A stretch of 64,000 nt of DNA from Sulfurospirillum sp. (GTDB lineage: Bacteria; Campylobacterota; Campylobacteria; Campylobacterales; Sulfurospirillaceae), in assembly GCA_014859685.1 (NCBI GenBank), contig JACUTU010000002.1, positions 62,001 through 126,000 on the forward strand, read 5' to 3'. A program made the translations under genes and the position numbers. The notes beneath the pieces were generated by a model. It ran no database searches and had not been told where the DNA came from. It worked only from the letters and a program-made list of their open reading frames with translations. Positions 1-64,000 of this stretch are shown piece after piece. The stretch's first letter is position 1, and every line of letters starts with the position of its first letter.

Positions 1-588
1 ACAATGCTCGATATAGATCACGGAACTTACCCTTATGTAACAAGTTCAAACACGGTAAGTGCTGGGGCGTGTTGCGGACTTGGCCTCAATCCAAAAGATA
101 TCGGTGATGTTACCGGCATCGTAAAAGCATACTGTACTCGTGTCGGCAATGGAGCATTTCCAAGCGAGGATTTTGGAAAAGATGGCAAAATGATGGCAGA
201 AATTGGCAAAGAAGTAGGTACAACAACAGGACGCATAAGACGATGTGGATGGTTTGATGCGGTCAGTGTTCGCTATGCTTCAAGGCTCAATGGATGCGAT
301 AAATTTGCTCTTATGAAACTCGATGTGCTTGATGGATTTGAACGCATTAAGATCTGTAGCGCGTATGAATATAAAGGTGAAATTATCGATTTTGTACCAA
401 GTGATCTTGAAAATGTCAAACCAATTTATGAAGAAATGAAGGGATGGGATAGTGTTGTTGGTATTAGCGATTTTGAGTCATTACCAGAAGCCGCAAAAGA
501 GTATATTTGGCGTATTGAAGAATTGACACAAACAAAAGTTGGTATCATATCAACAAGTCCAGAGAGAAATGATACGATAATTTTATAA
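1..588 (+). CDS. purA: Adenylosuccinate synthetase, C-terminal part (5' end outside window)
   Basis: The reading frame is already open at base 1, so this is the last 195 codons of a longer gene; the ATG at base 4 is internal. The product catalyses GTP-dependent joining of IMP and aspartate, the first step from IMP to AMP. The family signature [15 protein letters not shown] is present near the left edge, followed by the [12 protein letters not shown] segment and a C-terminal TGVGPERxxTI-like tail (here [13 protein letters not shown]). It lies 26 bases before the fliJ-like gene on the same strand, as in Campylobacter. Identification is secure; only the N-terminal GTP-binding half cannot be judged. 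Confidence 0.96.
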
Positions 589-614
589 GCCATAGATTAT
601 GCTAGGGGATTCTT

Positions 615-1037
615 GTGGAGCAAACATTTTCTCAAATTGCAAAGATAAGAAAACAAAAACTAGACACAATAGAGTCGCAACTCTTACATGTAAGGCGACA
701 AAAACAAGACGCACAAAAAGAACTTACGGCACTTTTTGAAAAGATAGAAAAATGCAATGTTCCAAAAGCTGGAAAGGCTTCTTTGATGAGCATTTTTGTA
801 GAAAATTTGCGATTGTTGCGTGTGCAAAAAACAGCGTGTGAAGCCCTGTTTGCAAAACTCATACAAGAGTTTGAACAGCTTCAAAAAGCGTACAAAGATG
901 CCAATATAGAGTTAGAAAAGATACGCTATTTGCAGCAGATGGCATATAAAGAACGCATAAAAAAAATAAACAAAAGAGAAAAGATAGAGATGGATGAGAT
1001 CGCAACGATGCTCTTTTCCAATGCAAAAGGTGGCTAG
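615..1037 (+). CDS. FliJ-like flagellar export chaperone (coiled-coil protein)
   Basis: A 140-residue, almost wholly helical and charged protein made of heptad-rich coiled coil, with no signal peptide or membrane segment. Size and composition fit the FliJ family, the small cytoplasmic stalk/chaperone of the flagellar type III export ATPase, which is poorly conserved in sequence. The GTG at 615 follows an AGGGG ribosome site at 604. The neighbouring motE-like gene and the purA-carA surroundings match the Campylobacter position of a FliJ candidate. The family call rests on shape and context, not on an invariant motif; another coiled-coil flagellar accessory protein is possible. Confidence 0.65.
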   Translation: MEQTFSQIAKIRKQKLDTIESQLLHVRRQKQDAQKELTALFEKIEKCNVPKAGKASLMSIFVENLRLLRVQKTACEALFAKLIQEFEQLQKAYKDANIELEKIRYLQQMAYKERIKKINKREKIEMDEIATMLFSNAKGG

Positions 1038-1038
1038 A

Positions 1039-2271: not shown

Positions 2272-2299
2272 AATAGTTCCTTACATGTAAGGAACTATT
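2272..2299. repeat. 28-bp perfect palindrome centred on TTACATGTAA
   Basis: AATAGTTCC on the left and GGAACTATT on the right flank TTACATGTAA, making a perfect palindrome of 28 bp. It lies 40 bases after the DUF4126 stop. As RNA it would form a strong hairpin, but no uridine run follows, so it is either a factor-independent stop of unusual form or a copy of the iterated palindrome embedded in a longer one. Confidence 0.75.
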
Positions 2300-6685: not shown

Positions 6686-6706
6686 ACATGTAGTTATGCT
6701 ACATGT
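6686..6706. repeat. Hairpin built from two copies of the ACATGT palindrome
   Basis: ACATGTAG (6686-6693), loop TTATG, CTACATGT (6699-6706): a perfect 8-bp stem starting 13 bases after the response regulator stop. There is no clear uridine run immediately after it. It may slow or end transcription before the cbb3 promoter. Confidence 0.65.
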
Positions 6707-6783
6707 AGCTCAATTAAACAAATAATTAACAAATATTTAACACAAATTTAATCTTGTTAAGCTTTTTTAAATTTAGCTTATAT

Positions 6784-11510: not shown

Positions 11511-11621
11511 GCTCTTCAAGCTATAAATTTTTGTAAAATATTTACTTTTTTGTAACTCATATTTTACTTACATGTAAGTATTGCATATTGTAATCTTTTT
11601 ATCAAAATTTAGTACCTATGC

Positions 11622-11653: not shown

Positions 11654-13987
11654 ATGACGCAAATATTTCCAACTTCAAGGTGCGTGCGGGAATTTTATGC
11701 CTCTTTTGCCCACACCGATCAGCTTCTCCCGAAAGCTTTGAGTATCGCAGAGTTTGAAGCTCGCAGTGTATTTGTGCCAAATAAGGTGCTTGCAGATGAA
11801 GATACGCGGGTTTTGCTTATGCACGAGGCAGCAAAGTTTAAAAATTTTTCTCAACTGAAGATTGAAAGAGAATTTCTCAGTTTTCTAAAAAATGCAAGCT
11901 ATTTGTTTGCTTTTTTTGAAGAATTGGCACATGAGGGCGTGAAGATAGAGGCACTTCACATTGCAGATACTTATGCAAATTTTGAAGAACATCTACTTGT
12001 CCTTGAACAATTACTAGAAAATTATCTACAACTTCTAGAAAAAAACCAACTTTATGATAAAATCTCATTGCCATGTGTGTATGAACTCAATGAAGATTTT
12101 TTGCATCAAAGTGATGGTTTTTTTATCCATCTTGAGGGTTTTTTAAGCCATTTTGAATTCACTCTCTTAAGTCAGATAGCACGCCTCACAACCCTTAAAA
12201 TATACTTACATGTAGGTGTATATAACAAAAAAATGCGTACACTTTTTAGTGATTTTGACCTTGAAGAAGGCTACAGCTATACGCTCAATCTAAGTACTAA
12301 AGAGGTTGAAAGTAAGCAAGTCTTTAGTCAAAATATCACAAATGCTGATGTCCGAGGATTTGGTTCGCGTTTTTTACAGTCTGCTTTTGTGCAAGAAAAA
12401 ATCAACGAATTTGTAACAAAAGGCATTGATCCTGAGCGAATTGCGGTAATCTTGCCTGATGAAAAATTTGCAAGCGTACTGAAAAATTTTGATTATTATA
12501 ACAATCTCAATTTTGCGATGGGTGAGAGTTTTCGCCACAATCCACTAAGTCAAAAACTCCACGCACTTGATAAGTTTTTACGAAAAAATGAACTCGAACA
12601 TTTTTATAGATTGCAACGACTTGGCATAACAGATGAGATAGTGCAAAGATTTAAAGATGTGTGGAGAAAAAAATTAACCCCTCAAGAGATCGTTGTTTTA
12701 TTGCAAGTTTTTTGTGATGATTTGCCAGAGCTAAAAGAGTTTGAAATCCAATTGTTTCGTTTTGAAAAGTTTATGTGCCGCATCGGCGAAATAAACTTTG
12801 AACAAGCAATGCAGCTATTTTTAAATCGATTAGACGGCGTGAGTGTTGATGATGTAAGAGGGGGTAAGGTTACTGTTATGGGGCTACTTGAGAGCCGTGG
12901 AGTTGCTTTTGATGGAGTTATCATTGTAGATTTTAATGATGAATTTGTACCAAAAAGAAGTAAAAAAGATCTCTTTTTAAGCTCACATGTAAGAAAAATT
13001 GCACATTTGCCTAACAGGGAAGATCGAGAAAATCTGCAACGCTATTTTTATGCACAACTTTTAAGTCGTGCCAAAGAAGTTGCGATTAGTTTTTGCGTTG
13101 ATGAACAAAGTAGTGGATCTCGATTTTTAGATGCTTTACATTTGCAAGCGGTTGAGCAATTTGATGAAAAATCTTACATGCAAGCTTTATTTAGGCAAAA
13201 ATCTTTGCTTCCGCGATTTGATAGGGAAAAAATCGAAGGAAGCTATGATCTCAAAAAATATCCACTCTCAGCAAGTAAACTAAAAACTGTGCTTACATGT
13301 AAGCGACAATTTTATTTCAAATACATACAAAAATTCAAAGAAGCAAAAATCCCAAGTACTCATATGAATGAAGCAGACATTGGCACTTTTTTACATAAAA
13401 CATTGTTTATGCTGCTACAAGAGCAAAAACCAAGTGATGCAAATGAGCTTATGATTGCATTGCGTTCCAAGATGATGCAGTACAATAGCTCCTTATTGTG
13501 GCAATTTCACACAGATATCTGGATGCAATACCTCAAAAAATTTTGTGAAAATGAAGTACAAAGATATGCACAAGGATATGAGGTATTTGCTCTTGAAAAA
13601 GAGTATAAAACGCACTATAAAGATTTTTTGCTAGAGGGAAAAATAGATAGAATTGATGTTTTGGATACAAAGCTATCTATCATCGATTATAAAAGTGGGA
13701 AGCTTCCTACATGTAGTGAAAAAACGCTCGAAAAATGTGTAGATTTTCAATTAGAATTTTACTACCTGCTGTGCAAAGATATAGCTGAAATTGAGGGAGT
13801 TTATTATTATCCTCTTAAAATTGGCAAACTCCAAGCTGAAGATCTATTTGAGCAAAAACTTGCACAACTTGATATGATCTTGGCAGATCTCAAAGAGCCT
13901 CTTAGGGATTTTGAAAAGTGTGCAACAAAAGAACCTTGTAAGTTTTGTGCGTATGCCACAATATGCGGGAGGAATGGGGATGTCTGA
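11654..13987 (+). CDS. addB: AddB-like helicase/exonuclease subunit (PD-(D/E)XK nuclease)
   Basis: 777 residues. Partner of AddA in double-strand break resection and recombination. The N-terminal half is helicase-like without a Walker A motif. The C-terminal nuclease (about 540-770) has LLEGKIDRID, IIDYKSGK and a later Tyr motif. Cysteines in VLTCKRQFYF and in KEPCKFCAYATICG form the four-Cys iron-sulfur staple of AddB nucleases. It overlaps addA by eight bases. Campylobacter Cj1482c occupies the same place. The divergence of N-terminal halves makes naming dependent on context, which is strong here. Confidence 0.85.
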   Translation: MTQIFPTSRCVREFYASFAHTDQLLPKALSIAEFEARSVFVPNKVLADEDTRVLLMHEAAKFKNFSQLKIEREFLSFLKNASYLFAFFEELAHEGVKIEALHIADTYANFEEHLLVLEQLLENYLQLLEKNQLYDKISLPCVYELNEDFLHQSDGFFIHLEGFLSHFEFTLLSQIARLTTLKIYLHVGVYNKKMRTLFSDFDLEEGYSYTLNLSTKEVESKQVFSQNITNADVRGFGSRFLQSAFVQEKINEFVTKGIDPERIAVILPDEKFASVLKNFDYYNNLNFAMGESFRHNPLSQKLHALDKFLRKNELEHFYRLQRLGITDEIVQRFKDVWRKKLTPQEIVVLLQVFCDDLPELKEFEIQLFRFEKFMCRIGEINFEQAMQLFLNRLDGVSVDDVRGGKVTVMGLLESRGVAFDGVIIVDFNDEFVPKRSKKDLFLSSHVRKIAHLPNREDRENLQRYFYAQLLSRAKEVAISFCVDEQSSGSRFLDALHLQAVEQFDEKSYMQALFRQKSLLPRFDREKIEGSYDLKKYPLSASKLKTVLTCKRQFYFKYIQKFKEAKIPSTHMNEADIGTFLHKTLFMLLQEQKPSDANELMIALRSKMMQYNSSLLWQFHTDIWMQYLKKFCENEVQRYAQGYEVFALEKEYKTHYKDFLLEGKIDRIDVLDTKLSIIDYKSGKLPTCSEKTLEKCVDFQLEFYYLLCKDIAEIEGVYYYPLKIGKLQAEDLFEQKLAQLDMILADLKEPLRDFEKCATKEPCKFCAYATICGRNGDV

Positions 13988-16712
13988 ATTGAAACCATTT
14001 TTAGCACTCCATGCGAGTGCGGGGAGTGGAAAAACTTATGCACTGAGTGTTCGGTATATCTCTTTGCTTTTTTTAGGAGCAAATCCGAACAAAATCCTTA
14101 CGCTTACTTTTACAAACAAAGCCGCAAGTGAGATGAAAAATAGAATTTATAAGACTCTTAAAAACTTAGAAAATAGTTCAGAATTAGAGAAAATTTGTTT
14201 ACAAACTGCCAAAAGCAAAGAACAAATTCTTGCTTTGCAAAAAGAGGTTTTACAAAAATTTTTAACACAAGATTTGCTCATCTGTACGCTTGACGCTTTT
14301 TTTGCTTCAATTTTGCGAAAATTTTCTTTACATGTAGGCTTGATGCCAGATTTTAAGATCGATGTATCGCTTTATGAAGAGGATTTTCTTGAGCGATTTT
14401 TAGCTACATGTAAGCGCGAGGGCAAGTATGATTCTTTAGTTGCATTGAGTTTCAATGAAGAGAAAAAACTCAGAGATATTTTTGTAACACTTGAGAATTT
14501 TTATGCCAAAGAGGGCGAGTTTGATGCGAGTGCCGCAAAACAACACGATTATAAAAATCCACAAAAAGTTCTCGACATTTGTAACCAGCTACAAGAAAGT
14601 TTGCAAAAAGCTAGTGTAAGTCAAAGAGGAGTTGAGAGTTTTAATAATCCAGATATAGCCAAACTCTTAAGCCGAAGTTTTTTAGCATATGAAAGCCTTG
14701 AAGAAAATAGATTGTATAAAAAATATATGACCCCGCAGATAAAACAACTCTATGCGGATCTACGCGATGAGTTGTTATCTTTTATCAATGCAAGAGAGCA
14801 GTATATATTAGGTGAGCTAGCAGCACTTTATAATATCTACAAACAATCAAGAAAGGCGTACAATAAAGAGTTTTCACTGCTAGCATTTGGCGATGTGAGC
14901 AGCCTTGTTTATACGCTTTTACAAGATGAAATCTCACAAGAATTTTTGTATTTTAGACTTGATGGAGCGGTTGAACATATCTTGCTTGATGAATATCAAG
15001 ATACAAATATATTGCAATATAAAATTCTAGAGCCATTGATGCGAGAGATTACTTCAGGCATCGGCGCACACCAACATCGCACGCTTTTTTTTGTAGGCGA
15101 TATTAAACAATCAATTTACCGTTTTCGTGGCGGCTCAAAAGAGTTGTTTGACTACACAATGACACAATTTGGTATGCAAAAAGATTTCTTGGACACAAAC
15201 TATCGTAGTTGCAAAAATATCGTGGAATTCGTAAATACAATTTTTGGCACAAAGATGCGTGATTATGAAATTCAAAAAGCACATGTAGATCAAGAAGGTT
15301 ATGTGGAGGTAGTTTGTTGTGAGGATATGAGCCAAGAACTTATTGGGCGTATCACATGGCTTCTTGAAAATGGTGTTGCAAGCAAGGATATCGCCGTGCT
15401 TGTGCATCAAAACAAGGATGCGCAAGTGTTTCGCGATCTTTTGTGTGAGCATTTTCCAAATCTTCAAGTGCAAACAGAGGCTGCTTTAAAACTCATAAAC
15501 ATTCCCCTTATCCGTGGAATTTTAGATTTTCTTGCTTATTTGTATTTTCAACAAGAACTTTTTTTGAAAAACTTTTTAGTTACTATTGGGATAGATTGGT
15601 GTGAAAATGTTGCTGTAAGTGGTTTTGATAGCAACAAAACACCACTTACACTCATCAGTGAAATTATACGAAGATTTGAAATCTTTGATGCGGATCTTGA
15701 TCTTATCAAACTTTTAGAGGTAGCAAGTCGCTATGATGATCTTGAGTCATTTCTTTTTGCGTGTCAAAAGTTCAGCGATGATGCAAAAATTCAAGACAAT
15801 AATGGCATCAAAATCCTTACGATCCACAAATCAAAAGGGTTGGAGTTTGCACATGTTATCTTGGTAGATAGACTTACAGCACCAAAACCAAATACCAATC
15901 CATGGCTCTTTGAACATGATGGCATAGCATTACAAGGTATTTATCAACGCACAAAAAATCGAGAATATTTTGATATAGATTATAAAAATGCAAAAGAAGG
16001 AGAGGCAAATTTAGCCTATGATGATACGCTCAATATGCATTATGTGGCATGTACTAGAGCTGCACAATCTTTGATCATTTGCAAAAAAGAAACGCACAGT
16101 GCTTTTGAGGCATTGGATTTGGAAGCAATGCAAAAAGGAAAGATAGAGGCGCAAAAGCCTATAGAGCAAAACGACAAAAAAATTCTCTCAATGCAGGGAG
16201 GTTTTCGTAGTTTTGGGTCGCAAAAGAAGGGAAAAGATGCGTTAAATGTGCATGACGAAGCGTTGCAAATTGCCGCAATTGAGTACGGTCTTGCGTTGCA
16301 TTATATGCTCGAAATGATGGTAAATTTTCAACAAACTTCACTACAAAACGCATTTGAGAGTATGCGTAACAGATATGCTATGACGCTTGATGCTAAGAGT
16401 TTGGATTCTATCTTGCAACGCGTATCTAGACTTGTTGCAAATGAGTATTTTCAAAAACTTCAATGCAATGCAAAAATCTATAAAGAACAGCCAATTTCCT
16501 ATGGGGGCGAGCGAAAACAGATAGATTTGCTCTTACAAACACAAGAATGCTACACGATCATAGACTATAAAAGTTCTGCACATACGCAAGAAGAACATAT
16601 TTTACAAGTAAAGGGCTATAAAAAGGCACTCACACAAATCCAGCCAAAACGAGTACAGGCATATTTGTGTTATCTGAAAGAGGATAGTGTGGAATTTGTA
16701 GAAGTGATATAA
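13980..16712 (+). CDS. addA: AddA-like UvrD/RecB helicase-nuclease
   Basis: About 910 residues from ATG 13980, which has GGGAGG upstream; a longer frame begins at 13911 inside addB. It is a superfamily 1 helicase: Walker A LHASAGSGKT, motif Ia LTFTNKAASEM, Walker B LLDEYQDTN, motif III FVGDIKQSIYRFRGG, motif V LTIHKSKGLEFAHVI, motif VI YVACTRA. The C-terminal nuclease carries GERKQIDLLL and IIDYKSS. Together with AddB it processes broken DNA ends for RecA. Shorter than the roughly 1200-residue Firmicutes AddA, normal for Campylobacterota. Confidence 0.9.
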   Translation: MSELKPFLALHASAGSGKTYALSVRYISLLFLGANPNKILTLTFTNKAASEMKNRIYKTLKNLENSSELEKICLQTAKSKEQILALQKEVLQKFLTQDLLICTLDAFFASILRKFSLHVGLMPDFKIDVSLYEEDFLERFLATCKREGKYDSLVALSFNEEKKLRDIFVTLENFYAKEGEFDASAAKQHDYKNPQKVLDICNQLQESLQKASVSQRGVESFNNPDIAKLLSRSFLAYESLEENRLYKKYMTPQIKQLYADLRDELLSFINAREQYILGELAALYNIYKQSRKAYNKEFSLLAFGDVSSLVYTLLQDEISQEFLYFRLDGAVEHILLDEYQDTNILQYKILEPLMREITSGIGAHQHRTLFFVGDIKQSIYRFRGGSKELFDYTMTQFGMQKDFLDTNYRSCKNIVEFVNTIFGTKMRDYEIQKAHVDQEGYVEVVCCEDMSQELIGRITWLLENGVASKDIAVLVHQNKDAQVFRDLLCEHFPNLQVQTEAALKLINIPLIRGILDFLAYLYFQQELFLKNFLVTIGIDWCENVAVSGFDSNKTPLTLISEIIRRFEIFDADLDLIKLLEVASRYDDLESFLFACQKFSDDAKIQDNNGIKILTIHKSKGLEFAHVILVDRLTAPKPNTNPWLFEHDGIALQGIYQRTKNREYFDIDYKNAKEGEANLAYDDTLNMHYVACTRAAQSLIICKKETHSAFEALDLEAMQKGKIEAQKPIEQNDKKILSMQGGFRSFGSQKKGKDALNVHDEALQIAAIEYGLALHYMLEMMVNFQQTSLQNAFESMRNRYAMTLDAKSLDSILQRVSRLVANEYFQKLQCNAKIYKEQPISYGGERKQIDLLLQTQECYTIIDYKSSAHTQEEHILQVKGYKKALTQIQPKRVQAYLCYLKEDSVEFVEVI

Positions 16713-16763: not shown

Positions 16764-16834
16764 CTCACTTCTTAAATTTATGTGTCTCGAAAGCTACATG
16801 TAAAGATTAAAAATATTTCGGCAAAGGTCTTCAA

Positions 16835-37015: not shown

Positions 37016-37404
37016 ATTATCTTGATGGCGTAGTGAGTAACATTGAAAATTGTGATAGCCTTCATATCGTCGAATTTGCAGTGGAAAACGAACATCTCTA
37101 TATGATGAGTTTGGAGATACCAACGATACATGTAGGTCTACATGTAAGGCTTGCCATCAAGCCTTTGAGCATCGCAATAGCCAAGAGATTTTTAGGTTCT
37201 ATCAGCTTTTCAAACAAGCTTTTTGCAACCGTCAAACAGATCAGCGAAGGGGTTCTTTTGTGCAGTGTAAAGTTAGATTTTAAAACCCATGAACTCGAGG
37301 CTGTGTTGCGTAAAAAAGCATTAGAAAATATGCATCTTAAAGTTGGTGATTCGGTAGTGCTTTTTATCAAGGCAAGTGATGTGTTTATTAAAGAGGTGTT
37401 ATGA
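37012..37404 (+). CDS. TOBE-domain molybdate-binding protein
   Basis: 130 residues. Two TOBE-like halves; the second is clearer ([36 protein letters not shown]). Similar small proteins act as molybdate stores or accessory sensors (ModG/Mop type). It lies between modA and modB with overlaps on both sides, so it is part of the uptake operon. The coding sequence contains two copies of TACATGTA almost back to back (about 37128 and 37140). The first half is divergent. Confidence 0.75.
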
Positions 37405-46222: not shown

Positions 46223-46411
46223 TTATATCTGTGCTTTGACCGTTTCGTTTGATTTGACGATATCACCACTTCCGTGAATGATGTGTGGGATACAGCCTGT
46301 GCATACATGTATCTCTTCATCGTTGCAGATGGCTTTGATGTAAACGGTATTTGCTTCTGCATCACTTGGTTTGAGACAAATGTTGCATATTGTTTTATTT
46401 TCGATTTGCAT
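46223..46411 (-). CDS. Small Cys-rich protein, probable zinc ribbon
   Basis: 62 residues with two Cys pairs, CNIC near residue 9 and CTGC near 37, spaced like a zinc or iron-binding ribbon, and an acidic middle. AGGAAAG precedes the ATG on the minus strand. I do not recognise the family. It faces the SHOCT gene and is divergent from luxS. Confidence 0.6.
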   Translation of the reverse strand: MQIENKTICNICLKPSDAEANTVYIKAICNDEEIHVCTGCIPHIIHGSGDIVKSNETVKAQI

Positions 46412-47480: not shown

Positions 47481-47892
47481 ATACTTCAAAATTAAATTCT
47501 AGTTTTTTTCCAAATCCAAGCGTATTGTCGGTAAATTTTATATAACTTACATGTAAGGTCCAAATAGTCGGATTGAGGGCTAAAGCATAAGGAAATGTTG
47601 CTAGATAAAGTGCCTTTTCGCCTAAATTTGCTCTTTGCATCAAACCACAAAACTGCAAACCCTGTATCTTGCCGATCTCTTTTGTTTCAAGTGCAATTGC
47701 ACCAGCGATATTTTCATTTTGCAAGGCTTCTTTGGCATGTCTTGTGGCATCATCTGTGGCAATTATGAACGAAAAAGGATCACTTTTGAAAGCATAAAAA
47801 CAGTTGGCACAATAAGGAATGTTATCCTTACATGTAGCCAAAGTGAGCAGATGATGTTGCGCAATAAATGCAGTAATCTTTTTTAAATTCAT
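47479..47892 (-). CDS. Pyridoxamine 5'-phosphate oxidase-like FMN-binding protein
   Basis: 137 residues, a split-barrel flavoprotein of the YhbP/UPF0306 type: FIAQHHLLTLATCKDNIPYCANCFYAF, SFIIATDDATRHAKEAL and IQGLQFCGLMQRA. Such proteins bind FMN or heme; substrate unknown. Its start overlaps the end of the DUF1294 gene by four bases. Confidence 0.8.
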   Translation of the reverse strand: MNLKKITAFIAQHHLLTLATCKDNIPYCANCFYAFKSDPFSFIIATDDATRHAKEALQNENIAGAIALETKEIGKIQGLQFCGLMQRANLGEKALYLATFPYALALNPTIWTLHVSYIKFTDNTLGFGKKLEFNFEV

Positions 47893-50488: not shown

Positions 50489-51034
50489 CTAGCTTTGTGT
50501 ATTGTAAACGATACTTCTACTTTTTGGTGTTTCAAAAAATTCTATATGTGATACATGTACGCCAATTTTGGACATTTTTTCTTGAACAATGCCAAGTAAC
50601 CAAGTGGAAATATTTTCGCTTGTTGGCACAAAATCCACGATGATATAGCCCTCATACAATTCATATAATGCCTCATTTTTGCCTTCTAACACTGAAGTAT
50701 CGGGTCTCTTAAAGCCCCCAGAACATTCTATGAGATTTATTTTATCGGCAAAATCAGGAAGCAAAGTTGAAAAAAGTGGATCATTGCTATCGATGATGAA
50801 CTTATGGTCAAGTGTTTTGTCTAAAAAAATTTTAAACCAGTTGAGATGATGAAAATCTGTCACCATTCCTCGTTCCAACTTATCGCTGCTAAGATAGACT
50901 ATAAGTCTGCCTTGATGACCGTGCAGATGACGACATGCCAAACAGCTATCCATGGAGTATTCGACATCGAGTGTCTGCGACCAAACACGATGTCCATAAC
51001 AAAAATCAAACTGCTTGGCTATTTTCCACTTCAT
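50489..51034 (-). CDS. queD: 6-carboxytetrahydropterin synthase (QueD family)
   Basis: 181 residues, longer than E. coli QueD (about 120). Zinc His in CYGHRVWS and HLHGHQG, catalytic Cys in SCLACRHLHGH, VTDFHHLNW and LDHKFIID. Makes carboxytetrahydropterin for queuosine. Divergent from queE with about 60 bases between starts, which contain the shared promoter region. Confidence 0.9.
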   Translation of the reverse strand: MKWKIAKQFDFCYGHRVWSQTLDVEYSMDSCLACRHLHGHQGRLIVYLSSDKLERGMVTDFHHLNWFKIFLDKTLDHKFIIDSNDPLFSTLLPDFADKINLIECSGGFKRPDTSVLEGKNEALYELYEGYIIVDFVPTSENISTWLLGIVQEKMSKIGVHVSHIEFFETPKSRSIVYNTQS

Positions 51035-51094: not shown

Positions 51095-51673
51095 ATGAAT
51101 AAGATAGTAGATATTTTTTACTCCTTGCAAGGCGAGGGGACTTTTGTGGGAACTCCTAGCATCTTTATACGGTTTTATGGATGCAATTTAGAGTGTTCTT
51201 TTTGCGATGATATAAAACACACGGAATCTTTTGAGCATTTTAGCAATGAGGAGCTTTTGCAAAAGATACAGGGCTTTACATGTAAGCAAGTTGTAATAAC
51301 GGGCGGAGAGCCAAGTATCTATAATCTCAATGCTTTTATAGAGTTTTTGCAAGCATATGGATACTTTGTTTGCGTTGAAAGTAATGGCTTCAAATTTGCC
51401 AATATACAAAGTGCAAATTGGATAACTTATAGTCCAAAAGATTGGGATACGATAGCGCTTAAGGGATGTGATGAGTACAAATTCATCGTCTCGTCTGCAA
51501 GTAAAGTGGACAAAATTTTGGCATTACAAACAAACAAACCGATTTTTATACAGCCACAAAATGATTTTCTCACTGCCAATGCCACAAATGTCAAGTACTG
51601 TATAGAATTAGTCAAAGCACATTCACGCCTCAGACTAAGTGTGCAATTGCACAAGTATTTAGGCGTAGAATAG
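51095..51673 (+). CDS. queE: 7-carboxy-7-deazaguanine synthase (radical SAM)
   Basis: 192 residues from ATG 51095 with TAGAGG upstream; the open frame extends further upstream but overlaps queD. Radical SAM enzyme of queuosine synthesis: YSLQGEGTFVGTPSIFIRFYGCNLECSFCD contains the CxxxCxxC cluster site, then VITGGEPSIYN. Short form without extra domains. Converges on the hydrogenase-like operon. Confidence 0.94.
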   Translation: MNKIVDIFYSLQGEGTFVGTPSIFIRFYGCNLECSFCDDIKHTESFEHFSNEELLQKIQGFTCKQVVITGGEPSIYNLNAFIEFLQAYGYFVCVESNGFKFANIQSANWITYSPKDWDTIALKGCDEYKFIVSSASKVDKILALQTNKPIFIQPQNDFLTANATNVKYCIELVKAHSRLRLSVQLHKYLGVE

Positions 51674-51681: not shown

Positions 51682-52431
51682 TCACAATTTTCCTAGATAA
51701 TTAAGCAAAGCATGCAGTGTAGTGTATGGGTGTGGCGGACATCCAGGAATGTAGAGATCTACATGTAAGAGCGTATCAAGTCCTTGTGAACAAACATCGT
51801 TTGCGTGAAAAATACCGCCACTAATCGCACAAGCACCTGAGGCTATGACTATTTTTGGCTCGCTAATCGCTTCATAAGTTCGCAATAACGGCTCTCGCAT
51901 ATGTTCATTGATGGGACCTGTAACGATGATACCATCGCTATGTCTTGGAGATGCTGCGAAACTAATGCCAAAGCGAGCAAGATCATAAGTTGGCGTTCCT
52001 AAAACATTGAGATCGGCTTCACAAGCATTACATCCTCCCGCACTTATCTGCCTTAGCTGTAAGGATCTGCCAAAAAGTGCTCTAATCTCTCGCTTGACTA
52101 GCATACCTATATGTTCTATCTCACCGCTTACATGTAAAGCTTCACGGCTTGTTTGGGCTAAGCGGTATTCATTTGAAAACGAGATTACTCCCTCCTCGCA
52201 CACATCTTCACAATCTTTACAAAAGATGCAACGCCCTAAATCAATCATAGGTTTAGTTTCTAGTTTTATAGCATCACTTGGGCAGATATCTTTACATGCA
52301 GTACAATTTGTAGCACAAGCTCCTTTAATCTGCGGAGTGCCTACAAATCGAGGTGAGAGTATTGGTGCAACTTTAGGAAATGCACTTGTGTTGTATCCTT
52401 GAATCCAGCGTTCTTTGAGTATAAAAAACAT
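51682..52431 (-). CDS. Fused ferredoxin-NuoB-like small subunit of the Ehr/hydrogenase-4-like complex
   Basis: 249 residues that join two proteins usually separate in hydrogenase 4 (HyfH and HyfI). Residues about 38-95 form a two-cluster ferredoxin: CATNCTACKDICP and CIFCKDCEDVC. Residues about 110-249 are the NuoB/HyfI-like small subunit with all four proximal-cluster cysteines (GGCNACEAD, SGACAISGG, IPGCPPHP). It would carry electrons to the catalytic-like subunit. Last gene of a six-gene minus-strand operon, nine bases after the large subunit. Confidence 0.9.
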   Translation of the reverse strand: MFFILKERWIQGYNTSAFPKVAPILSPRFVGTPQIKGACATNCTACKDICPSDAIKLETKPMIDLGRCIFCKDCEDVCEEGVISFSNEYRLAQTSREALHVSGEIEHIGMLVKREIRALFGRSLQLRQISAGGCNACEADLNVLGTPTYDLARFGISFAASPRHSDGIIVTGPINEHMREPLLRTYEAISEPKIVIASGACAISGGIFHANDVCSQGLDTLLHVDLYIPGCPPHPYTTLHALLNYLGKL

Positions 52432-53931: not shown

Positions 53932-55336
53932 AAACACCTCCTAATAATTGTGTAGCTTCAAGCAAGACTTGTGATACGAATGAGGGCATATAAAGACCGA
54001 TAAAAGCCACGATGCCTAAGAAAAGAAAGGGACTCACAAACATAAAAGAGCGTTCATGAAACCTTTGCATACCAGTAGGCGGCTTACCGCGAACAACCCC
54101 TAGGATGGTGCGGCTCATACCAAAAAAAGCGATAACTAAACCAAAGATGAGTGCAAAAAATAGCAAGATAGAATAAGAAAATGTACCTTGAATGATATGA
54201 AAAATGGATACAAAACTTCCAAAAGGAGGTGTTCCTACGATCGCAAAGAGAGCAATTAGCAGGGCAAAAGCACTATATGGCATGATACGAATTGCTCCAG
54301 AAATGCCTTTCGCATCTCGCGTACCAAAAACTCTTTTGACATTGCCAAGGGCGATAAAAACAGTGCCTTTAAGTAAAGCATTGTTAAAAAGATGGTACAT
54401 AGCCGCCCAAATACCAGCACCGCCTAAGCCAAAGCCAATGGCGATAAGCCCCATCTGTTCTACGCTTGAATATGCCATCAGTCTTTTGGTGTCATTTTGT
54501 TTGAGCATAGAAAATGCACCGAAAAGCACCGAAAGAATACCAAATACGATCAAGGCATCACGCATACAAGCTTCTTGATGTGCTGCGTGCATGATCTGCA
54601 TCAAGCGCATCATAGCAAGCCATGAAAGTGTTGTCATGCCACCAGCCATCAATGCCCCAAACAATCCAGGTTCTTCACTATAAGCATCAACTTTCCAAAG
54701 ATGCAGAGGAAAAAGTCCGATTTTGGTTGCAAAGCCTATAAAGATGAAAACAAAAGCGATGAGAAACCATGTTGTGTTAAACTCTTCTGCTCTTGCAAAA
54801 AGTGTGAAAAAATCAAGATCCATATGTTCGATATTTGCAATCAGTGAAGAGTAAGCTAAAAATAAAATCCCAATAAGTGCGAGTAAAATTCCGATGGAAA
54901 CTAAGAAGAGGTATTTCCAAGTTGCTTCGATGGAGCCTTTATTTTTTGTGTAGTAGATGAGCGGCGCACACGAGAGTGAGGAGGATTCGAGAAAAATCCA
55001 CATACTAATGAGATCTTTGGCCATCATCATGCCAGTTGCAAAAAATAAAAACAGATGTAAACTGATGATAACTACAAGATTGGAATTATCCTTCAAACAA
55101 TGTGAAAAATATCCAATAGCGTGCAGAGCAATGCCTCCAAAAAGCAGTGAGAGTGTAACTAAAATCCAGACCGAAAGCGCGTCCATGCCACTATTTTGTC
55201 CAAGCAATACAACAAAGCTCATGCTTACATGTAACAAAGCAGTGATCCCTAAAATCACAGCTCTTTGATGATTTGTTTTGCCAAAATAGCTCAAGCCTAT
55301 TGCTAAAAGTGTCCAGATAAAAAAAGCTATGAGCAT
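53918..55336 (-). CDS. NuoN/HyfF-like antiporter-type membrane subunit
   Basis: 472 residues, about 14 membrane helices. Proton-translocating module of the complex I antiporter family: MDALSVWILVTLSLLFGGIALHAIGY, ATKIGLFPLHLWKVDAYSEEPGLFGALMAGGM, KRLMAYSSVEQMGLIAIG and FNNALLKGTVFIALGNV are the conserved segments with the key Lys and His. Lies between the HyfE-like and large subunit genes. Confidence 0.92.
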   Translation of the reverse strand: MLIAFFIWTLLAIGLSYFGKTNHQRAVILGITALLHVSMSFVVLLGQNSGMDALSVWILVTLSLLFGGIALHAIGYFSHCLKDNSNLVVIISLHLFLFFATGMMMAKDLISMWIFLESSSLSCAPLIYYTKNKGSIEATWKYLFLVSIGILLALIGILFLAYSSLIANIEHMDLDFFTLFARAEEFNTTWFLIAFVFIFIGFATKIGLFPLHLWKVDAYSEEPGLFGALMAGGMTTLSWLAMMRLMQIMHAAHQEACMRDALIVFGILSVLFGAFSMLKQNDTKRLMAYSSVEQMGLIAIGFGLGGAGIWAAMYHLFNNALLKGTVFIALGNVKRVFGTRDAKGISGAIRIMPYSAFALLIALFAIVGTPPFGSFVSIFHIIQGTFSYSILLFFALIFGLVIAFFGMSRTILGVVRGKPPTGMQRFHERSFMFVSPFLFLGIVAFIGLYMPSFVSQVLLEATQLLGGVYGGF

Positions 55337-56905: not shown

Positions 56906-58869
56906 AAGAAACTCACATATAAAAGCATCACAATAAGTGTTGCTAAGATATACAATACATATAATCCCATGTAGCCATTGTGTACGAAAGCGCGTAAGCG
57001 ATTGGCAAAAGATTGTATCGCAAGCCCCATAAAGTTGAGTGCAGCGATATTTTTGTCATCAAAATGTAGATGGAAATTCAATGATTTTGGAAAAAGACCA
57101 GAAATCTCAAAGAGATGTCGTTTGCCCTTAAACATCCATCCATAATACTCTAAAAGCATCTGCGCAAGTGAACCTGCTGTATATTGTGCTCTTTTTGGTG
57201 GTGCGTGGTAGCCACATCCCCAAGTGCCAACACATTTACTCGATTTTTTAGAAAGTTTGAGCCAAAGTACCGTGATAACTACCACCGCAAGCGGCAAAAT
57301 ATATAGATATGCTTCACTAAGATCTTGCAAAGCAAGCAGAGAAATTTCAGGTGTACTGACTCCAAATAAAACAGCGACACTAAAGAGCATTTGCATCATT
57401 AAAAATGGCATCAATCCAAGTACTATGCAGATAAATGCAATCACACCCATAGGCAACAACATCCAACGCGATGATTCGTGTATCCCCTCAAGTGAGATAT
57501 CCCGAGGTGTACCTAAAAATGTTGCACCAAAGACTTTTATGAAACATGCAAGTGCGAGAGTGCCAATAGTAGCGAGACCTAAAATGCCAAGCAAAAGGAT
57601 GATCATTTGCTGGCTTGCAAAGATATTTTTAAACATGCCTAGATATAAAAGCCATTCGCTTGCAAAACCATTAAGCGGCGCAATGCCCACAATTGCTACA
57701 GCACCTATGAGAAAAAACAAAGCAGTGTAGGGCATCACGCGCAATATTCCTCCAAAAGCAGCAATATTTCGTGTATGAAACGCTTCGATTACAGAACCGG
57801 CACTGTAAAAAAGAAGTGGTTTAAACAAGGAATGGTTGAGTACATGAAAAACAGCCCCAGCAATTCCAAAAAGCATTAAGCTTTGATTGCCATAACTCTG
57901 CCCTAGCATCGCCATGCCTATACCTATCATAATAATGCCGATATTTTCGATACTATGGTAGGCCAAAAGGCGTTTAATATCGTGTTGCGCAATAGCATAA
58001 ATTACGCCTAGAAGTCCTGATATGATTCCAATGATAAAAAGTAGCCATCCCCACCAGTGAGGCGGTTGTGCAAATAAAAGACAGATGCGAAGTATCCCAA
58101 AGATGCCCATCTTGATCATCACGCCAGAAAGCAAAGCCGAAACAGAAACCGGGGCATTTGCATGTGCTGATGGAAGCCAAAAATAGAGTGGAAAAATGCC
58201 GGCTTTGAGTCCAAAACCAAACAAACCCAATAGAAAAATGATACTCGCCACACTACTGTTTTGATCGATAATGTGCCAAGAAGCACTGAGCGTTGTCACA
58301 CCAAAATAAGTATATAAAAGACCAAAAACACCCAAAAGTGCAATGACACCTGTGTGTGTAGCGATGATGTAGATAAATCCAGCTTCGTTAGCTTCTTTGT
58401 CATCTTCATCGATGCTGATGAGTCCATAAGCTAATAGCGACATCATCTCCCATGCGAGCAAAAACAGCATAAAACTATCAGAAATAACCAATAAAACCAT
58501 AGAAAAAGTAAAGAGTCCAAAAAGTAAACGATAATACCAAGAAGCCCGTACGCCTCTATGCTCATACGAATAATAACTCAAGCCATACAAACAACTAGCG
58601 CTACTGATGAGAAGAATCGAGAGAAGAAAAAATGCACTCAAGGCATCGCAATGCAAGACAAGCGTTTGCCCTAAAAGAGAAAATGGAAAGGTTACATGTA
58701 GGGCTATTGGGTTTTGAAAAAAGTTTATAACAAAGCCTAAGCCAAACAATGCGCCGATGATATGCAAAAGAGCGCCTAATTTTTCAGACATAGCTATATG
58801 GTTGCGAAAAAAAATCGGTATAAAAGCTGATATGAAGATGAAAAATAGAGAAAAATATAATAATATCAA
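56902..58869 (-). CDS. NuoL/HyfB-like antiporter-type membrane subunit
   Basis: 655 residues, about 15 helices; first gene of the operon. Antiporter core with LLAWEMMSLLAYGLISIDE, LKAGIFPLYFWLPSAHANAPVSVSALLSGVMIKMG, DIKRLLAYHSIENIGII and LNHSLFKPLLFYSAGSV. The C-terminal part has GTWGCGYHAPPKRAQYTAGSL, typical of HyfB. Together with the HyfF-like subunit it gives the complex two ion-pumping modules. Confidence 0.94.
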   Translation of the reverse strand: MILLYFSLFFIFISAFIPIFFRNHIAMSEKLGALLHIIGALFGLGFVINFFQNPIALHVTFPFSLLGQTLVLHCDALSAFFLLSILLISSASCLYGLSYYSYEHRGVRASWYYRLLFGLFTFSMVLLVISDSFMLFLLAWEMMSLLAYGLISIDEDDKEANEAGFIYIIATHTGVIALLGVFGLLYTYFGVTTLSASWHIIDQNSSVASIIFLLGLFGFGLKAGIFPLYFWLPSAHANAPVSVSALLSGVMIKMGIFGILRICLLFAQPPHWWGWLLFIIGIISGLLGVIYAIAQHDIKRLLAYHSIENIGIIMIGIGMAMLGQSYGNQSLMLFGIAGAVFHVLNHSLFKPLLFYSAGSVIEAFHTRNIAAFGGILRVMPYTALFFLIGAVAIVGIAPLNGFASEWLLYLGMFKNIFASQQMIILLLGILGLATIGTLALACFIKVFGATFLGTPRDISLEGIHESSRWMLLPMGVIAFICIVLGLMPFLMMQMLFSVAVLFGVSTPEISLLALQDLSEAYLYILPLAVVVITVLWLKLSKKSSKCVGTWGCGYHAPPKRAQYTAGSLAQMLLEYYGWMFKGKRHLFEISGLFPKSLNFHLHFDDKNIAALNFMGLAIQSFANRLRAFVHNGYMGLYVLYILATLIVMLLYVSFL

Positions 58870-58985
58870 ATATAGAACCTCTAAAAATATGAATAGCTAT
58901 TTTACAACAAATCAAATAAATAAGCCTTTAAGTCATATAATTTTATAATTGATTTTATAGCTTTACATGTAAGGAACGAAAAAAT

Positions 58986-60895: not shown

Positions 60896-61660
60896 TCAAC
60901 CAAATTTTCCTGTTATGTATTGTTGCGTTTTTTCCTCGCGAGGATTGACAAATATCTGCTCAGTTTCACCGTATTCTATCAAATCACCAAGATGAAAAAA
61001 TGCCGTCATATCTGCAACTCGTGCTGCTTGTTGCATATTGTGTGTCACGACAATGAGTGTAAATTTTTCTTTTAATTCTACCATGAGATTCTCTATCGTT
61101 TGGGTACTGATAGGATCAAGCGCGCTTGTTGGCTCATCCATTAAGATGACATCTGGTTGCACCGCAATGGTTCTAGCGATACAAAGTCGTTGTTGCTGTC
61201 CTCCTGAGAGTGCAGTTCCTGGCTCTTTGAGTTTGTCTTTCACCTCTTCCCAAAGACCTGCATTTTTAAGTGAGTTTTCAACTAGAGCATCACACTCTTT
61301 TCCTTTTTTAACGATATCATGCATGATTGGAGCATAAGCGATATTGTCATAGATACTTTTTGGAAATGGGTTTGGCTGTTGAAAAACCATACCTATCTTT
61401 CTTCGCACGGCTACTTCGTCAACTTCTGGAGCGTAGATATTGTGTCCATCTATCTCTACTGTTCCTGCAATCCTTACACCATCGATGAGATCATTCATGC
61501 GGTTTAAGCATCTGAGATATGTTGATTTTCCACAACCTGATGGCCCTATGAAAGCAGTAATCTGATTTTGAATGATATCAAGATCAATTCCTTTAAGAGC
61601 TTGATTGTCTCCGTACCAAAGTTTCAGATCTCTTGATTTTATTTTTATTTCGTTATTCAT
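60896..61660 (-). CDS. pstB: Phosphate ABC transporter ATP-binding protein
   Basis: 254 residues from ATG 61660 with TAGGAAA upstream; TTG 61675 would add five residues. Walker [21 protein letters not shown]-loop [19 protein letters not shown], signature [16 protein letters not shown], Walker [14 protein letters not shown]-loop [11 protein letters not shown]. Energises phosphate uptake. Last gene of pstCAB here; no phoU follows. Confidence 0.97.
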
Positions 61661-61668
61661 ATTATTTC

Positions 61669-62847
61669 CTACCAAGTTTTTGTAAATTTTTTTCTAAGAT
61701 AAATCGCGATTGCATTAAGTGAGAGTAAGATGGTTAAAAGCACTAATATTCCAGCCGCTGTCTTTTCTGTATACATTCTCTCAGGCATACCTGACCAAGT
61801 ATAAATTTGTGCCGGCATAACAGTTGCAGCATCAAAGATGCTCGTTGTTGCATCTGGGACAAAGGCAATCATACCTACGATGATGAGTGGTGCAGTTTCT
61901 CCTATGGCTTGAGCAAGAGCAATGATAGAGCCTGTGAGCATTCCTGGAAATGCGATAGGTAAAACATGATCACGCACTATCTGCCATCTTGTAAGTCCTA
62001 GTCCAAAACCAGCTTGGCGAATTGTGTCAGGGACAGCTTTGAGGGCTGCTTTTGAACTTACGATGATGACTGGTAAGCTCATAAGTGCCAAAGTCATACC
62101 TCCAACTATCGGGGAGCTTCTTGGCGCTCCAAAGAAGTTGATAAAAATTGCAAGTCCTAATAAGCCAAATAAGATAGAAGGAATGGCTGCGAGATTGTTG
62201 ATGTTTATCTCAACCATTTGTGTCCATTTGTTGTCTTTTGCAAATTCTTCAAGATAGATAGCAGTCATAATGCCAAGTGGTACAGCGATAGCCATAGTTA
62301 CTAACATTGTGAGTAATGAACCCAAGATAGCTGAATAAAAACCAGCATTTTCAGGGATTTTAGAATCTCCCGTAAAGAAGAAAATGGTACTAAATTGAGA
62401 CTGGATTTTTCCCTCATCTTTAAGTTTATTGACTTTTTCTTTGAGTGCATCTGTGAGTTTATTTGTATGATTTTTAAGATATTGATCAACTTCTGCAGCA
62501 GTTGGAGCCCAGATAGTAGCAGTTGTTTCTAAAAGCGTTGGATCATCTTTCATCATCATGGGCAGACTTCTTATCCATGCACGGCTGATGATTTTCATCT
62601 CATCTTTTGTAAATGCACTGTATGGATTGTTTTGTACATCTTGTGTCAAATTTATATCGACTTTGACATAAGCCTGATTAAAAGCTGGGTAACCTTGTCG
62701 CACCATCTCATATAAAAAGAAAACCAAAAAAGCTAGCGAAAGAAAAAGGGCCGATTTTGCAAAAAGTTCAAATCTTCTAGCTTTTACCTTTCTTTTTTGG
62801 AGCTGTGGGATATAAAAGTAGTTATCATTTTTCATTGTGTGCCTCAT
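61669..62847 (-). CDS. pstA: Phosphate ABC transporter permease A
   Basis: 392 residues with an N-terminal membrane helix ([16 protein letters not shown]), a periplasmic insertion (about 60-165) and the six-helix permease core. The permease loop is [42 protein letters not shown]. Longer than E. coli PstA (about 296) because of the insertion, common in Campylobacterota. Overlaps pstC by four bases. ATG 62835 is an alternative start. Confidence 0.95.
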
Positions 62848-64000
62848 AGATTAGATACTTTATATTTTTTATGGAATGCCCTGATTGTATAAACTGAAAC
62901 GATGTTTATGATGAGTGTAACAGCAAATAAAACAAGTCCAAGTGCAAAAGCTGAGAGTGTTAAAGAGCTGTTAAACTCTTGATCTCCTACCAAAGATTCC
63001 ACTATCTTGACAGTGACCGTTGTCATATCTTCTAGCGGATTCCATGTGAGATTTGGTCGTAAGCTTGCTGCCATAACCACAATCATGGTTTCGCCCAAAG
63101 CTCTTGATACTCCAAGGAGTGTTGCTGCTATGATTCCTGGCATGGCTGATGGAAGAACAACATTTTTGATAGTTTCTGCTTTATTCATCCCAAGAGCAAG
63201 TGAGCCGTTTCGAATATTTTGAGGAACAGAACTTATAACATCATCTGAAAGTGAAGCGATGATAGGGACAATCATAATACCCATAACAACACCTGCTCCA
63301 AGTGCGCTTTCATAAGAAGCTCTAATGCCAAGGTTTTCAAAAAGATTGACTAAAAAAGGTGCTACGGTGATTGCTGCAAAGAAACCGTATACAACAGTAG
63401 GAATACCAGCCAATATCTCAAGAGCTGGTTTTACACGATTTCTTGTTTTGGTTGTAGCATATTCGCTCATATAGATTGCAGAAAACAAACCAATAGGAAC
63501 TGCGACAAGCATAGCAATAGCAGTGATGTAAAATGTGCCCGCAAAAATAGGAACTGCTCCAAACTTAGCTTGAGCCACATCTTCCCCAGTCCTTCCAGCT
63601 CCCTCTAAGAATGCTGTGTCTGGATTCCAATTTGTACCTGTGATAAATGCAATGATACTCTCACGCTTGAAAAACTCTAATGCCTCAAACAATATAGAAA
63701 CTAAAATACCAAAAGTAGTGAGAATAGAGATAAGAGAAGCTAGTATTAAAAGTCCCTTAATGACACCTTCTACTTTATCTCTTGCTCTTGTTTTTTCATT
63801 CATAGATTTAAAAACAAGAAAAAAGCTTAACGCCCCAAGAGCAAATGAAGCACTTATGAGCATCAACGGTGGAATACCATTAAATCCAAAAAGATATAAG
63901 AACATCCCAACGCTTGCGAGCGTCAATACGGGTAATGTTGTATAAAGTGCCACAAACCAACCATACTGTTCTGGTTGAGAATGTATTTTTATGCCTTTGA
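62844..64000 (-). CDS. pstC: Phosphate ABC transporter permease C (5' end outside window)
   Basis: The frame is open through the right edge: codons before GTG 63953 read HSQPEQYGWFVALYTTLP, a segment typical of long PstC proteins, so GTG is not the start and the N-terminus lies beyond 64000. About 385 residues are visible, with the permease loop SLALGMNKAETIKNVVLPSAMPGIIAATLLGVSRALGET. It forms the channel with PstA. The binding protein PstS would be expected further right. Confidence 0.95.
   Translation of the reverse strand, partial: KGIKIHSQPEQYGWFVALYTTLPVLTLASVGMFLYLFGFNGIPPLMLISASFALGALSFFLVFKSMNEKTRARDKVEGVIKGLLILASLISILTTFGILVSILFEALEFFKRESIIAFITGTNWNPDTAFLEGAGRTGEDVAQAKFGAVPIFAGTFYITAIAMLVAVPIGLFSAIYMSEYATTKTRNRVKPALEILAGIPTVVYGFFAAITVAPFLVNLFENLGIRASYESALGAGVVMGIMIVPIIASLSDDVISSVPQNIRNGSLALGMNKAETIKNVVLPSAMPGIIAATLLGVSRALGETMIVVMAASLRPNLTWNPLEDMTTVTVKIVESLVGDQEFNSSLTLSAFALGLVLFAVTLIINIVSVYTIRAFHKKYKVSNL

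What the first reader, a model, noticed from the sequence alone, without database searches (positions are those of the whole stretch)
1..64000. TACATGTA is a highly iterated palindrome across the window
Reading through the sequence I counted about 34 TACATGTA and about 52 ACATGT sites. For DNA of this base composition about two TACATGTA are expected in 64 kb. The fullest form is GCTTACATGTAAGC (for example 13292, 38287, 40979, 47545, 51277, 58960). It sits inside genes in different frames (coding LTCK, LHV or TCR) and in spacers. No TACATGTA occurs in 41.3-46.2 kb, the region of the mini-IS, restriction island and thyA-folA, nor in 59-64 kb. This resembles HIP1 of cyanobacteria or DNA-uptake words of Neisseria and Pasteurellaceae. 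I know of no such word described for Campylobacterota.
Basis: partly seen in the sequence, partly recalled or inferred. Interest (0 to 1): 0.8.

Follow-up and report, generated by a model that had tools for sequence, protein, structure and literature searches.

The report
Genome-wide iterated palindrome TACATGTA in Sulfurospirillaceae
A family of sulfur-cycling bacteria carries the same eight-letter palindrome, TACATGTA, about once every two kilobases, kept in place by something acting on the DNA itself and statistically tied to a DNA-methylating enzyme, much like the still unexplained HIP1 word of cyanobacteria.

Summary
The window has 34 TACATGTA against about 1 expected; its genome has 1110 against 38 for the reversed control word. 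In the family (Sulfurospirillaceae) 42 of 44 genomes have at least three times the control. In a second family (Sulfurimonadaceae, inferred) 43 of 228 do. None of the 309 other genomes sampled in the order reaches 80 copies. Sites are randomly spaced, mostly inside genes, and conserved as DNA: with the amino acid unchanged, motif codons stay identical 85% of the time against 56% expected. Density associates with an HpyIM/NlaIII-type (CATG, m6A) D12 methyltransferase: 24 of 38 carriers enriched against 19 of 190 non-carriers, and 18/28 against 17/155 in genomes not used to form the hypothesis. Two other methyltransferase classes show no association. Exceptions run both ways, so the enzyme is neither necessary nor sufficient. 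Best reading: a HIP-like word built on a methylation site, read by an unidentified factor. Uptake, possibly methylation-dependent as in Campylobacter, is the main rival. Methylation, reader and function are untested here.

The parts
685..692 (.). TACATGTA site
   Evidence: exact match
2282..2289. TACATGTA site (intact at the aligned place in L008, not in L052)
   Evidence: exact match
6700..6707 (.). TACATGTA site
   Evidence: exact match
11569..11576 (.). TACATGTA site
   Evidence: exact match
12207..12214. TACATGTA site (intact at the aligned place in L009, L012, L036, L037)
   Evidence: exact match
13291..13304. GCTTACATGTAAGC, the only full 14-mer in the window; core intact at the aligned place in 10 relatives
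13708..13715. TACATGTA site (not intact in any aligned relative)
   Evidence: exact match
14329..14336. TACATGTA site (intact at the aligned place in 6 relatives)
   Evidence: exact match
14405..14412 (.). TACATGTA site
   Evidence: exact match
16795..16802 (.). TACATGTA site
   Evidence: exact match
18108..18115. TACATGTA site (intact in L036)
   Evidence: exact match
18426..18433 (.). TACATGTA site
   Evidence: exact match
20954..20961 (.). TACATGTA site
   Evidence: exact match
23234..23241 (.). TACATGTA site
   Evidence: exact match
27243..27250 (.). TACATGTA site
   Evidence: exact match
27335..27342 (.). TACATGTA site
   Evidence: exact match
28471..28478 (.). TACATGTA site
   Evidence: exact match
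37127..37134 (.). TACATGTA site, starting 12 bp before the next one
   Evidence: exact match
37139..37146 (.). TACATGTA site
   Evidence: exact match
38290..38297 (.). TACATGTA site
   Evidence: exact match
38874..38881 (.). TACATGTA site
   Evidence: exact match
39332..39339 (.). TACATGTA site
   Evidence: exact match
40407..40414 (.). TACATGTA site
   Evidence: exact match
40981..40988 (.). TACATGTA site
   Evidence: exact match
46304..46311 (.). TACATGTA site
   Evidence: exact match
47548..47555 (.). TACATGTA site
   Evidence: exact match
47829..47836 (.). TACATGTA site
   Evidence: exact match
50552..50559 (.). TACATGTA site
   Evidence: exact match
51277..51284 (.). TACATGTA site
   Evidence: exact match
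51760..51767 (.). TACATGTA site
   Evidence: exact match
52129..52136 (.). TACATGTA site
   Evidence: exact match
55226..55233 (.). TACATGTA site
   Evidence: exact match
58693..58700 (.). TACATGTA site
   Evidence: exact match
58964..58971 (.). TACATGTA site
   Evidence: exact match

Best explanation
TACATGTA is a highly iterated palindrome of the HIP kind, carried by nearly all Sulfurospirillaceae and by scattered Sulfurimonadaceae. SHOWN: genome-wide iteration, random dispersal, DNA-level conservation of individual sites, and a strong but imperfect association with an HpyIM/NlaIII-type alpha-class (D12) adenine methyltransferase whose expected site, CATG, is the core of the word. INFERRED: the enzyme (at the Sulfurospirillum place examined, an orphan with no endonuclease recognised beside it) m6A-methylates CATG; the methylated CATG in the TA-flanked palindrome is read by a second, unidentified dimeric DNA-binding factor as a genome-wide mark (strand or self identity for repair, recombination or uptake); that reading keeps existing sites from changing; when the enzyme or reader is lost the word erodes.
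For: 1110 copies against 38 for the control in this genome; 42 of 44 family members at 3x control or more. Dispersed: 186 of 248 sites in ORFs, no preferred part of the ORF, no divergent-promoter excess, random gaps. DNA-level conservation: 65% of 466 aligned comparisons intact against 16.5% of control 8-mers at 70-80% identity, and only 5% one mismatch away against 28%; 960 of 1135 motif codons kept given the same amino acid (85%) against 56% expected, although the amino acids there are less conserved (48% against 71%). Near-misses in this genome concentrate on the outer base: CACATGTA 70 against 6.9, as Elhai 2015 describes for HIP1 (PMC4390886 section 2.6). Enzyme association: second family 24/38 against 19/190, Fisher p 1e-11; hold-out 183 genomes 18/28 against 17/155, p 6e-9; within the first family p 0.02-0.03 and within genus g2 p 0.007-0.013 by rank test. 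In the same 36 f17 genomes the enzyme gives 6/8 against 3/28 (p 0.001) while PF01555 gives 4/8 against 16/28; PF00145, in 24 genomes, 4/8 against 9/16. In one sub-clade of a single-gene tree, carriers have 848, 527 and 221 copies, non-carriers 113, 61, 54 and 32, one of these with an enzyme relic at the same dxr-tsaD place; that genome's 4 aligned TACATGTA are all intact in its relative, against 17% for controls, so they look ancestral. [quoted passage not shown] HP1208 methylates CATG as m6A, alpha class (PMC3936762 passages).
Against: The enzyme is not necessary: G006 (1124 copies), G028 (1201), G160 (611), G471, G474, G476 and G478 (682-737) lack it (G006 and G160 have no D12 match at all). 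It is not sufficient: 14 of 38 carriers in the second family are not enriched, G005 carries an intact gene with only 28 copies, and genomes of other families carry it without the word. Within genera g4 and g5 no trend is visible. The association is not corrected for phylogeny and was found after three methyltransferase families were tried. In one search at most 5 candidates per genome were scored, so some absences there may be misses. Only G000 shows the outer-base near-miss excess strongly; G030 has no CACATGTA beside 51 TACATGTA. Methylation was not measured and no reader was found.
Confidence: 0.45

Rival explanations
1. TACATGTA is a DNA uptake sequence: the competence machinery prefers DNA carrying it, so the word accumulates by recombination of taken-up DNA. 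In a variant specific to this order, the machinery recognises the methylated word, as Campylobacter jejuni recognises its CtsM-methylated motif.
For: Density and random dispersal are like uptake words; ComEC is present in 77 of 80 genomes; sites outside ORFs of 90 aa or more are 1.7 times over-represented (62 against 35.7; short and RNA genes count as spacer there); methylation-dependent uptake is reported for C. jejuni in the same order (PMC8468864 passages), which would also explain the enzyme association; the word lies at variable protein positions.
Against: ComEC is equally present in genomes without the word. Known uptake words are not palindromes (recalled). Plasmid pSDCE1 carries 14 sites in 39.9 kb, 0.35 per kb, not far below the 0.49 per kb of genome G003. 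Near-miss sites are rarer than drive by uptake would suggest. No receptor candidate was tested.
Confidence: 0.25
2. TACATGTA is the site of a nucleoid or chromosome-organising protein that binds as a dimer, with no role for methylation.
For: A symmetric site with symmetric weaker flanks (CTTACATGTAAG in G000, CTTTACATGTAAAG in G030) is typical of dimeric binding; site-by-site conservation.
Against: Random spacing; it does not explain the methyltransferase association.
Confidence: 0.15
3. A by-product of biased mutation or repair at a methylated site, without function, as Elhai proposed for HIP1 (a methyl-cytosine-directed mismatch repair ratchet).
For: Association with a methyltransferase; plasmid DNA carries the word too; another genome has another palindrome (G005: ATCATGAT 32 against 7.3 per 100 kb).
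Against: Sites are conserved at aligned places far above controls over large divergence, which needs lasting maintenance. The published model needs a methylated C after G (PMC4390886 section 3.4 part 1); here the expected mark is m6A in CATG and the word holds no GC step.
Confidence: 0.12
4. Ordinary composition or codon-usage effect.
For: None found beyond the A+T-rich genome.
Against: Markov orders 2, 3 and 5 leave it above expectation; the reversed word is at 38; 248 against 6.8 while no other 8-letter palindrome in this genome's 444 kb has p below 1e-5; the codon given the amino acid is conserved.
Confidence: 0.01

Closest known systems
HIP1 (GCGATCGC) and alternate HIPs of cyanobacteria
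   Same: 8-bp palindrome about once per 1-2 kb, in genes and spacers; core equals a methyltransferase site; lineage losses and replacement words; near-misses (in G000) at first and last base; a CRISPR-like repeat containing the word (in Synechocystis the CRISPR1 repeats match seven of the eight HIP1 bases; PMC6604393 passages).
   Different: Different phylum and sequence; A+T-rich arms; expected mark m6A in CATG rather than m5C in CGATCG; no GC step for the published repair model; the enzyme association has clear exceptions in both directions.
DNA uptake sequences of Neisseriaceae and Pasteurellaceae (DUS, USS)
   Same: Hundreds to thousands of dispersed copies; excess in spacers; family-wide with variation between genera.
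   Different: Palindromic; no uptake evidence; competence gene ComEC does not separate word-rich from word-poor genomes.
CtsM-methylated uptake motif of Campylobacter jejuni (RAATTY, recalled; printed as RATTY in PMC8468864)
   Same: Same order; a methylated short motif marks self DNA.
   Different: Other motif; over-representation of the word is the striking feature here; uptake untested.
HpyIM / M.HpyAI (HP1208) and NlaIII-type CATG methyltransferases
   Same: The associated enzyme belongs to this group by annotation of a 48.5% identical homologue and by the D12 profile.
   Different: No endonuclease recognised next to it at the Sulfurospirillum (g2) place (gene functions there judged by eye, not scanned); its specificity was not tested, and no direct comparison with HpyIM or NlaIII was made.

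Membership tests
Highly iterated palindromes (HIP) | One short palindrome grossly over-represented genome-wide | tested here: met
   1110 against 38; top of 256 palindromes
Highly iterated palindromes (HIP) | Dispersed in genes and spacers without regulatory placement | tested here: met
Highly iterated palindromes (HIP) | Present when a methyltransferase for the core is present, absent when it is not | tested here: inconclusive
   Strong association with exceptions both ways; specificity inferred, not measured
Highly iterated palindromes (HIP) | Near-misses concentrated at first and last base | tested here: inconclusive
   Clear in G000; CACATGTA beside TACATGTA: G160 7 and 37, G139 2 and 31, G030 0 and 51, G006 1 and 36, G012 2 and 23
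Highly iterated palindromes (HIP) | Sites methylated in the cell | not testable with these tools
   No modification data held
Cyanobacterial HIP1 proper | Sequence GCGATCGC | tested here: not met
   The word is TACATGTA; GCGATCGC is not among the five most significant palindromes of G000
DNA uptake sequence | Raises uptake or transformation of DNA carrying it | not testable with these tools
   needs an uptake assay
DNA uptake sequence | Carrier has competence machinery | tested here: met
   ComEC in 77 of 80 genomes; only this gene was searched; not discriminating
DNA uptake sequence | Depleted in foreign or mobile DNA | tested here: inconclusive
   pSDCE1 14 sites in 39.9 kb (0.35/kb), none inside its annotated transposase genes
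Restriction site under avoidance | Site under-represented | tested here: not met
   over-represented

The most novel reading that the evidence does not exclude
A methylation-dependent self-DNA password: an orphan CATG methyltransferase marks TACATGTA, the competence (or recombination) machinery accepts only the marked word, and the genome has filled with it. This would be a palindromic, methylated uptake sequence in two families of free-living Campylobacterota, uniting HIPs with uptake sequences.
Probability: 0.17. Interest if true: 0.87.

Novelty: new variant of a known kind. Interest (0 to 1): 0.66.

Why it matters
HIP1 has had no agreed function since it was described, and the papers seen treat it in cyanobacteria. 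An independent case in another phylum, with a different core and an expected m6A mark, argues against explanations tied to GATC or methyl-cytosine repair, and gives natural contrasts (related genomes with about 50 and about 850 copies) and cultured non-pathogenic species. If uptake is involved it would extend methylation-gated transformation beyond Campylobacter.

Tried and rejected
Methyltransferase families PF01555 (80 genomes) and PF00145 (44 genomes): some complete word-rich genomes lack them (for example G003 lacks both) and the tests in f17 show no association. The whole D12 family (44 genomes) was too broad and was narrowed to the HpyIM type.

ComEC as discriminator: present almost everywhere.

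Autoregulation: the plasmid copy of the enzyme gene holds four TACATGTA, but the chromosomal copies examined in word-rich genomes hold 2 against 6.9 expected; rejected. Broken enzyme genes as an excuse for enzyme-bearing, word-poor genomes: the stops reported inside matches are the terminal ones in G005, G334, G014, G025, G015, G090 and G076; G339 begins in a run of N and cannot be judged.

A common TA-flanked rule for alternate palindromes (TACCGGTA, TATCGATA): not supported once Markov order 3 was used. Absence from the restriction island: not unusual.

PDB search with the enzyme profile: no match at E 0.001. NCBIfam scan of two enzymes: only sub-cut-off matches. Literature: no mention of the word in these bacteria was seen in the listings; one search listed 10 papers holding the letters tacatgta, none of them by title or abstract about a bacterial genome. 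PMC8112702 (passages) gives m5C motifs of S. denitrificans DSM1251 (CGCG, CCNGG, GATC, CCGG), none holding ACATGT; the method targets m5C. Papers: PMC4390886 abstract, section 2.6 and section 3.4 part 1 (of 2), and a term search; PMC8468864, PMC4687069, PMC3936762, PMC6604393 and PMC8112702 passages only; all others as search listings.
Full report
THE OBSERVATION. The window has 34 TACATGTA; 100 dinucleotide-preserving shuffles give 1.06 on average and at most 4. ACATGT occurs 52 times. The window is part of a genome of 2,096,005 bases in 23 contigs, which has 1110 TACATGTA against 38 of the reversed word ATGTACAT. Over the window plus 400 kb of sampled stretches the word occurs 287 times. One stretch (L093) holds a CRISPR-like array with the word in each of 33 repeats; without that stretch it is 248 against 6.8 expected at Markov order 3, and no other 8-letter palindrome comes near. 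The site-free stretches it noted are within chance.

WHO HAS IT. Among the 80 nearest relatives of the window's CcoN protein the best named ones are Sulfurospirillum, beside unnamed metagenome bins. The 44 family genomes held were counted: 42 have at least three times the control, G013 has 109 against 50 and G005 28 against 25. Of 398 genomes over the order, outside this family (44) and family f17 (45) none of 309 reaches 80 copies; the highest is 51. The 228 f17 genomes held were counted; 43 have at least 80 copies and three times the control, up to 1768.

ANATOMY. The strict part in this genome is ACATGT with T/A outside; CACATGTA is the one common variant (70 against 6.9), TGCATGTA (28 against 13) and GACATGTA (11 against 3.4) are milder, and the other single changes are at or near background. 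In other genomes CACATGTA is rarer (G030 0 beside 51 TACATGTA, G139 2 beside 31, G160 7 beside 37). Weaker symmetric flanks differ between genera: CTTACATGTAAG in G000, CTTTACATGTAAAG in G030.

PLACEMENT. Of 248 sites 186 lie in ORFs of 90 aa or more (86% of the DNA) and 62 outside (35.7 expected; short and RNA genes count as outside); there is no preferred position within ORFs; among 49 outside sites with both neighbouring ORFs seen, 9 are divergent, 12 convergent and 28 co-directional; gap CV is 0.94 against 0.96+-0.06 simulated. The reading frame that would put TAC ATG TAA/TAG in register is nearly absent (9 of 186), as expected from the stop codon.

CONSERVATION. Seventeen of the 80 loci (those with two or more sites, except the two Sulfurimonas-titled ones; 21 loci have at least one) and the first 30 kb of the window were aligned pairwise. 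At 70-80% identity 65% of 466 TACATGTA comparisons are intact and 5% are one mismatch away, against 16.5% and 28% for control 8-mers of equal G+C. Below 70% identity: 24.6% of 945 against 8.1%. At 80% or more: 88% of 59 against 30%. At protein level (gene pairs of at least 45% identity) the residues coded by motif codons are less conserved than others (48% against 71%); where the residue is unchanged the codon is kept in 960 of 1135 cases (85%) against 56% expected from the same codons elsewhere. These comparisons share sequences and are not independent, but the direction is clear: something maintains the DNA word, not the protein.

METHYLTRANSFERASES. PF01555 (80 genomes) and PF00145 (44) are absent from some complete word-rich genomes. 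PF02086 (44) contains a subtype of about 330 aa. A profile of eight of these (A1) was searched over 398 genomes of the order (at most 5 candidates scored per genome) and the 228 of f17. [quoted passage not shown] HP1208 methylates CATG as m6A and is alpha class (PMC3936762 passages). CATG specificity is thus inferred for our enzymes. At the Sulfurospirillum (g2) place the gene stands with the same neighbours in several genomes and no endonuclease was recognised by eye; in f17 it sits, in five of the genomes examined, at a variable spot between dxr and tsaD (gene names there from recall of the sequences).

ASSOCIATION. In f17, 24 of 38 carriers and 19 of 190 non-carriers are word-rich (Fisher p 1e-11). 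In the 183 f17 genomes not seen when the hypothesis was formed it is 18 of 28 against 17 of 155 (p 6e-9). In the 36 f17 genomes the enzyme gives 6/8 against 3/28 (p 0.001), PF01555 4/8 against 16/28 (p 1); in the 24 PF00145 gives 4/8 against 9/16 (p 1). In the first family carriers (31 of 44) are denser (rank test p 0.02-0.03), most clearly within genus g2 (p 0.007 at 90% completeness, 0.013 for all). In one f17 sub-clade of a TsaD tree of 34 genomes (single gene, supports not examined), carriers have 848, 527 and 221 copies, non-carriers 113, 61, 54 and 32; G284 (54) keeps a 43-residue relic of the enzyme at the same place, and all 4 of its aligned sites are intact in G210, while only 4 of 45 G210 sites are intact in G284 (75% DNA identity). 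Against this: word-rich genomes without the enzyme (G006, G028, G160, G314, G411, G471, G474, G476, G478 and others); carriers without the word (14 in f17; G005, whose gene is intact); no trend within g4 and g5; and occurrence of the enzyme in other families without the word. The association has no phylogenetic correction.

ALTERNATE WORDS. G005, the family member with no enrichment, instead has ATCATGAT (32 against 7.3 per 100 kb), also centred on CATG, and carries the enzyme. G334 has CGATCG at 37 against 17. Two f17 genomes and one Sulfurimonas-titled locus show an asymmetric word AGATGC.

MECHANISM. I commit to a HIP-like mark built on a methylation site, read by an unidentified dimeric factor, at 0.45. 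Uptake, perhaps methylation-dependent as in C. jejuni (PMC8468864 passages), is the main rival at 0.25. ComEC is in 77 of 80 genomes, so competence is possible throughout but does not discriminate. Plasmid pSDCE1 of S. diekertiae has 14 sites in 39.9 kb, none inside its annotated transposase genes. The published HIP1 repair model needs methyl-C after G (PMC4390886 section 3.4 part 1) and does not carry over directly.

LIMITS.

Noticed in passing
L093 6138-8395 (same genome, contig C7): CRISPR-like array (by repeat-spacer pattern; cas genes not searched): 33 TACATGTA 68-75 bp apart, one per repeat (TTACATGTAGACCCGATAAAAAGGGGATTGAAAC), parallel to HIP1 in Synechocystis CRISPR1 repeats.
   Followed up: partly
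window and L085-L104: ACGT is almost absent: 15 sites in 464 kb. Samples of eight other genomes vary from 13 (G369) to 275 (G013) per 100 kb. It looks like restriction avoidance.
   Followed up: no
L200-L204 (G329), L210-L214 (G369), L080: The asymmetric word AGATGC is strongly over-represented on both strands in some Sulfurimonas-type genomes (266 against about 71 per 100 kb in G329), a candidate uptake- or Chi-like word of its own.
   Followed up: partly
L195-L199 (G005): Replacement palindrome ATCATGAT (32 against 7.3 per 100 kb; TATCATGA 52 against 8.8) in the family member with no TACATGTA enrichment.
   Followed up: partly
L377 1918-2468 and L379 30218-31141: The methyltransferase gene copy on two S. 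diekertiae plasmids holds four TACATGTA in two pairs 38-39 bp apart.
   Followed up: yes
L337-L356, L295-L299: The dxr-tsaD interval in family f17 is a variable spot holding the methyltransferase, other R-M-like genes, a protein of 1216-1257 aa, or nothing (not scanned against families).
   Followed up: partly
   Followed up: no
L287 around 6953-7196: Beside the methyltransferase of this genome lies an 80-aa remnant resembling the start of a second methyltransferase (longer relatives in G229 and G334), suggesting an R-M locus that decayed to an orphan.
   Followed up: partly
window, GGGGACAGGC family: GGGACAGGCT and overlapping words recur (5 copies, both strands read) and CTGTCCCC is also enriched in other stretches of the genome (15 against 0.7); not identified.
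   Followed up: no
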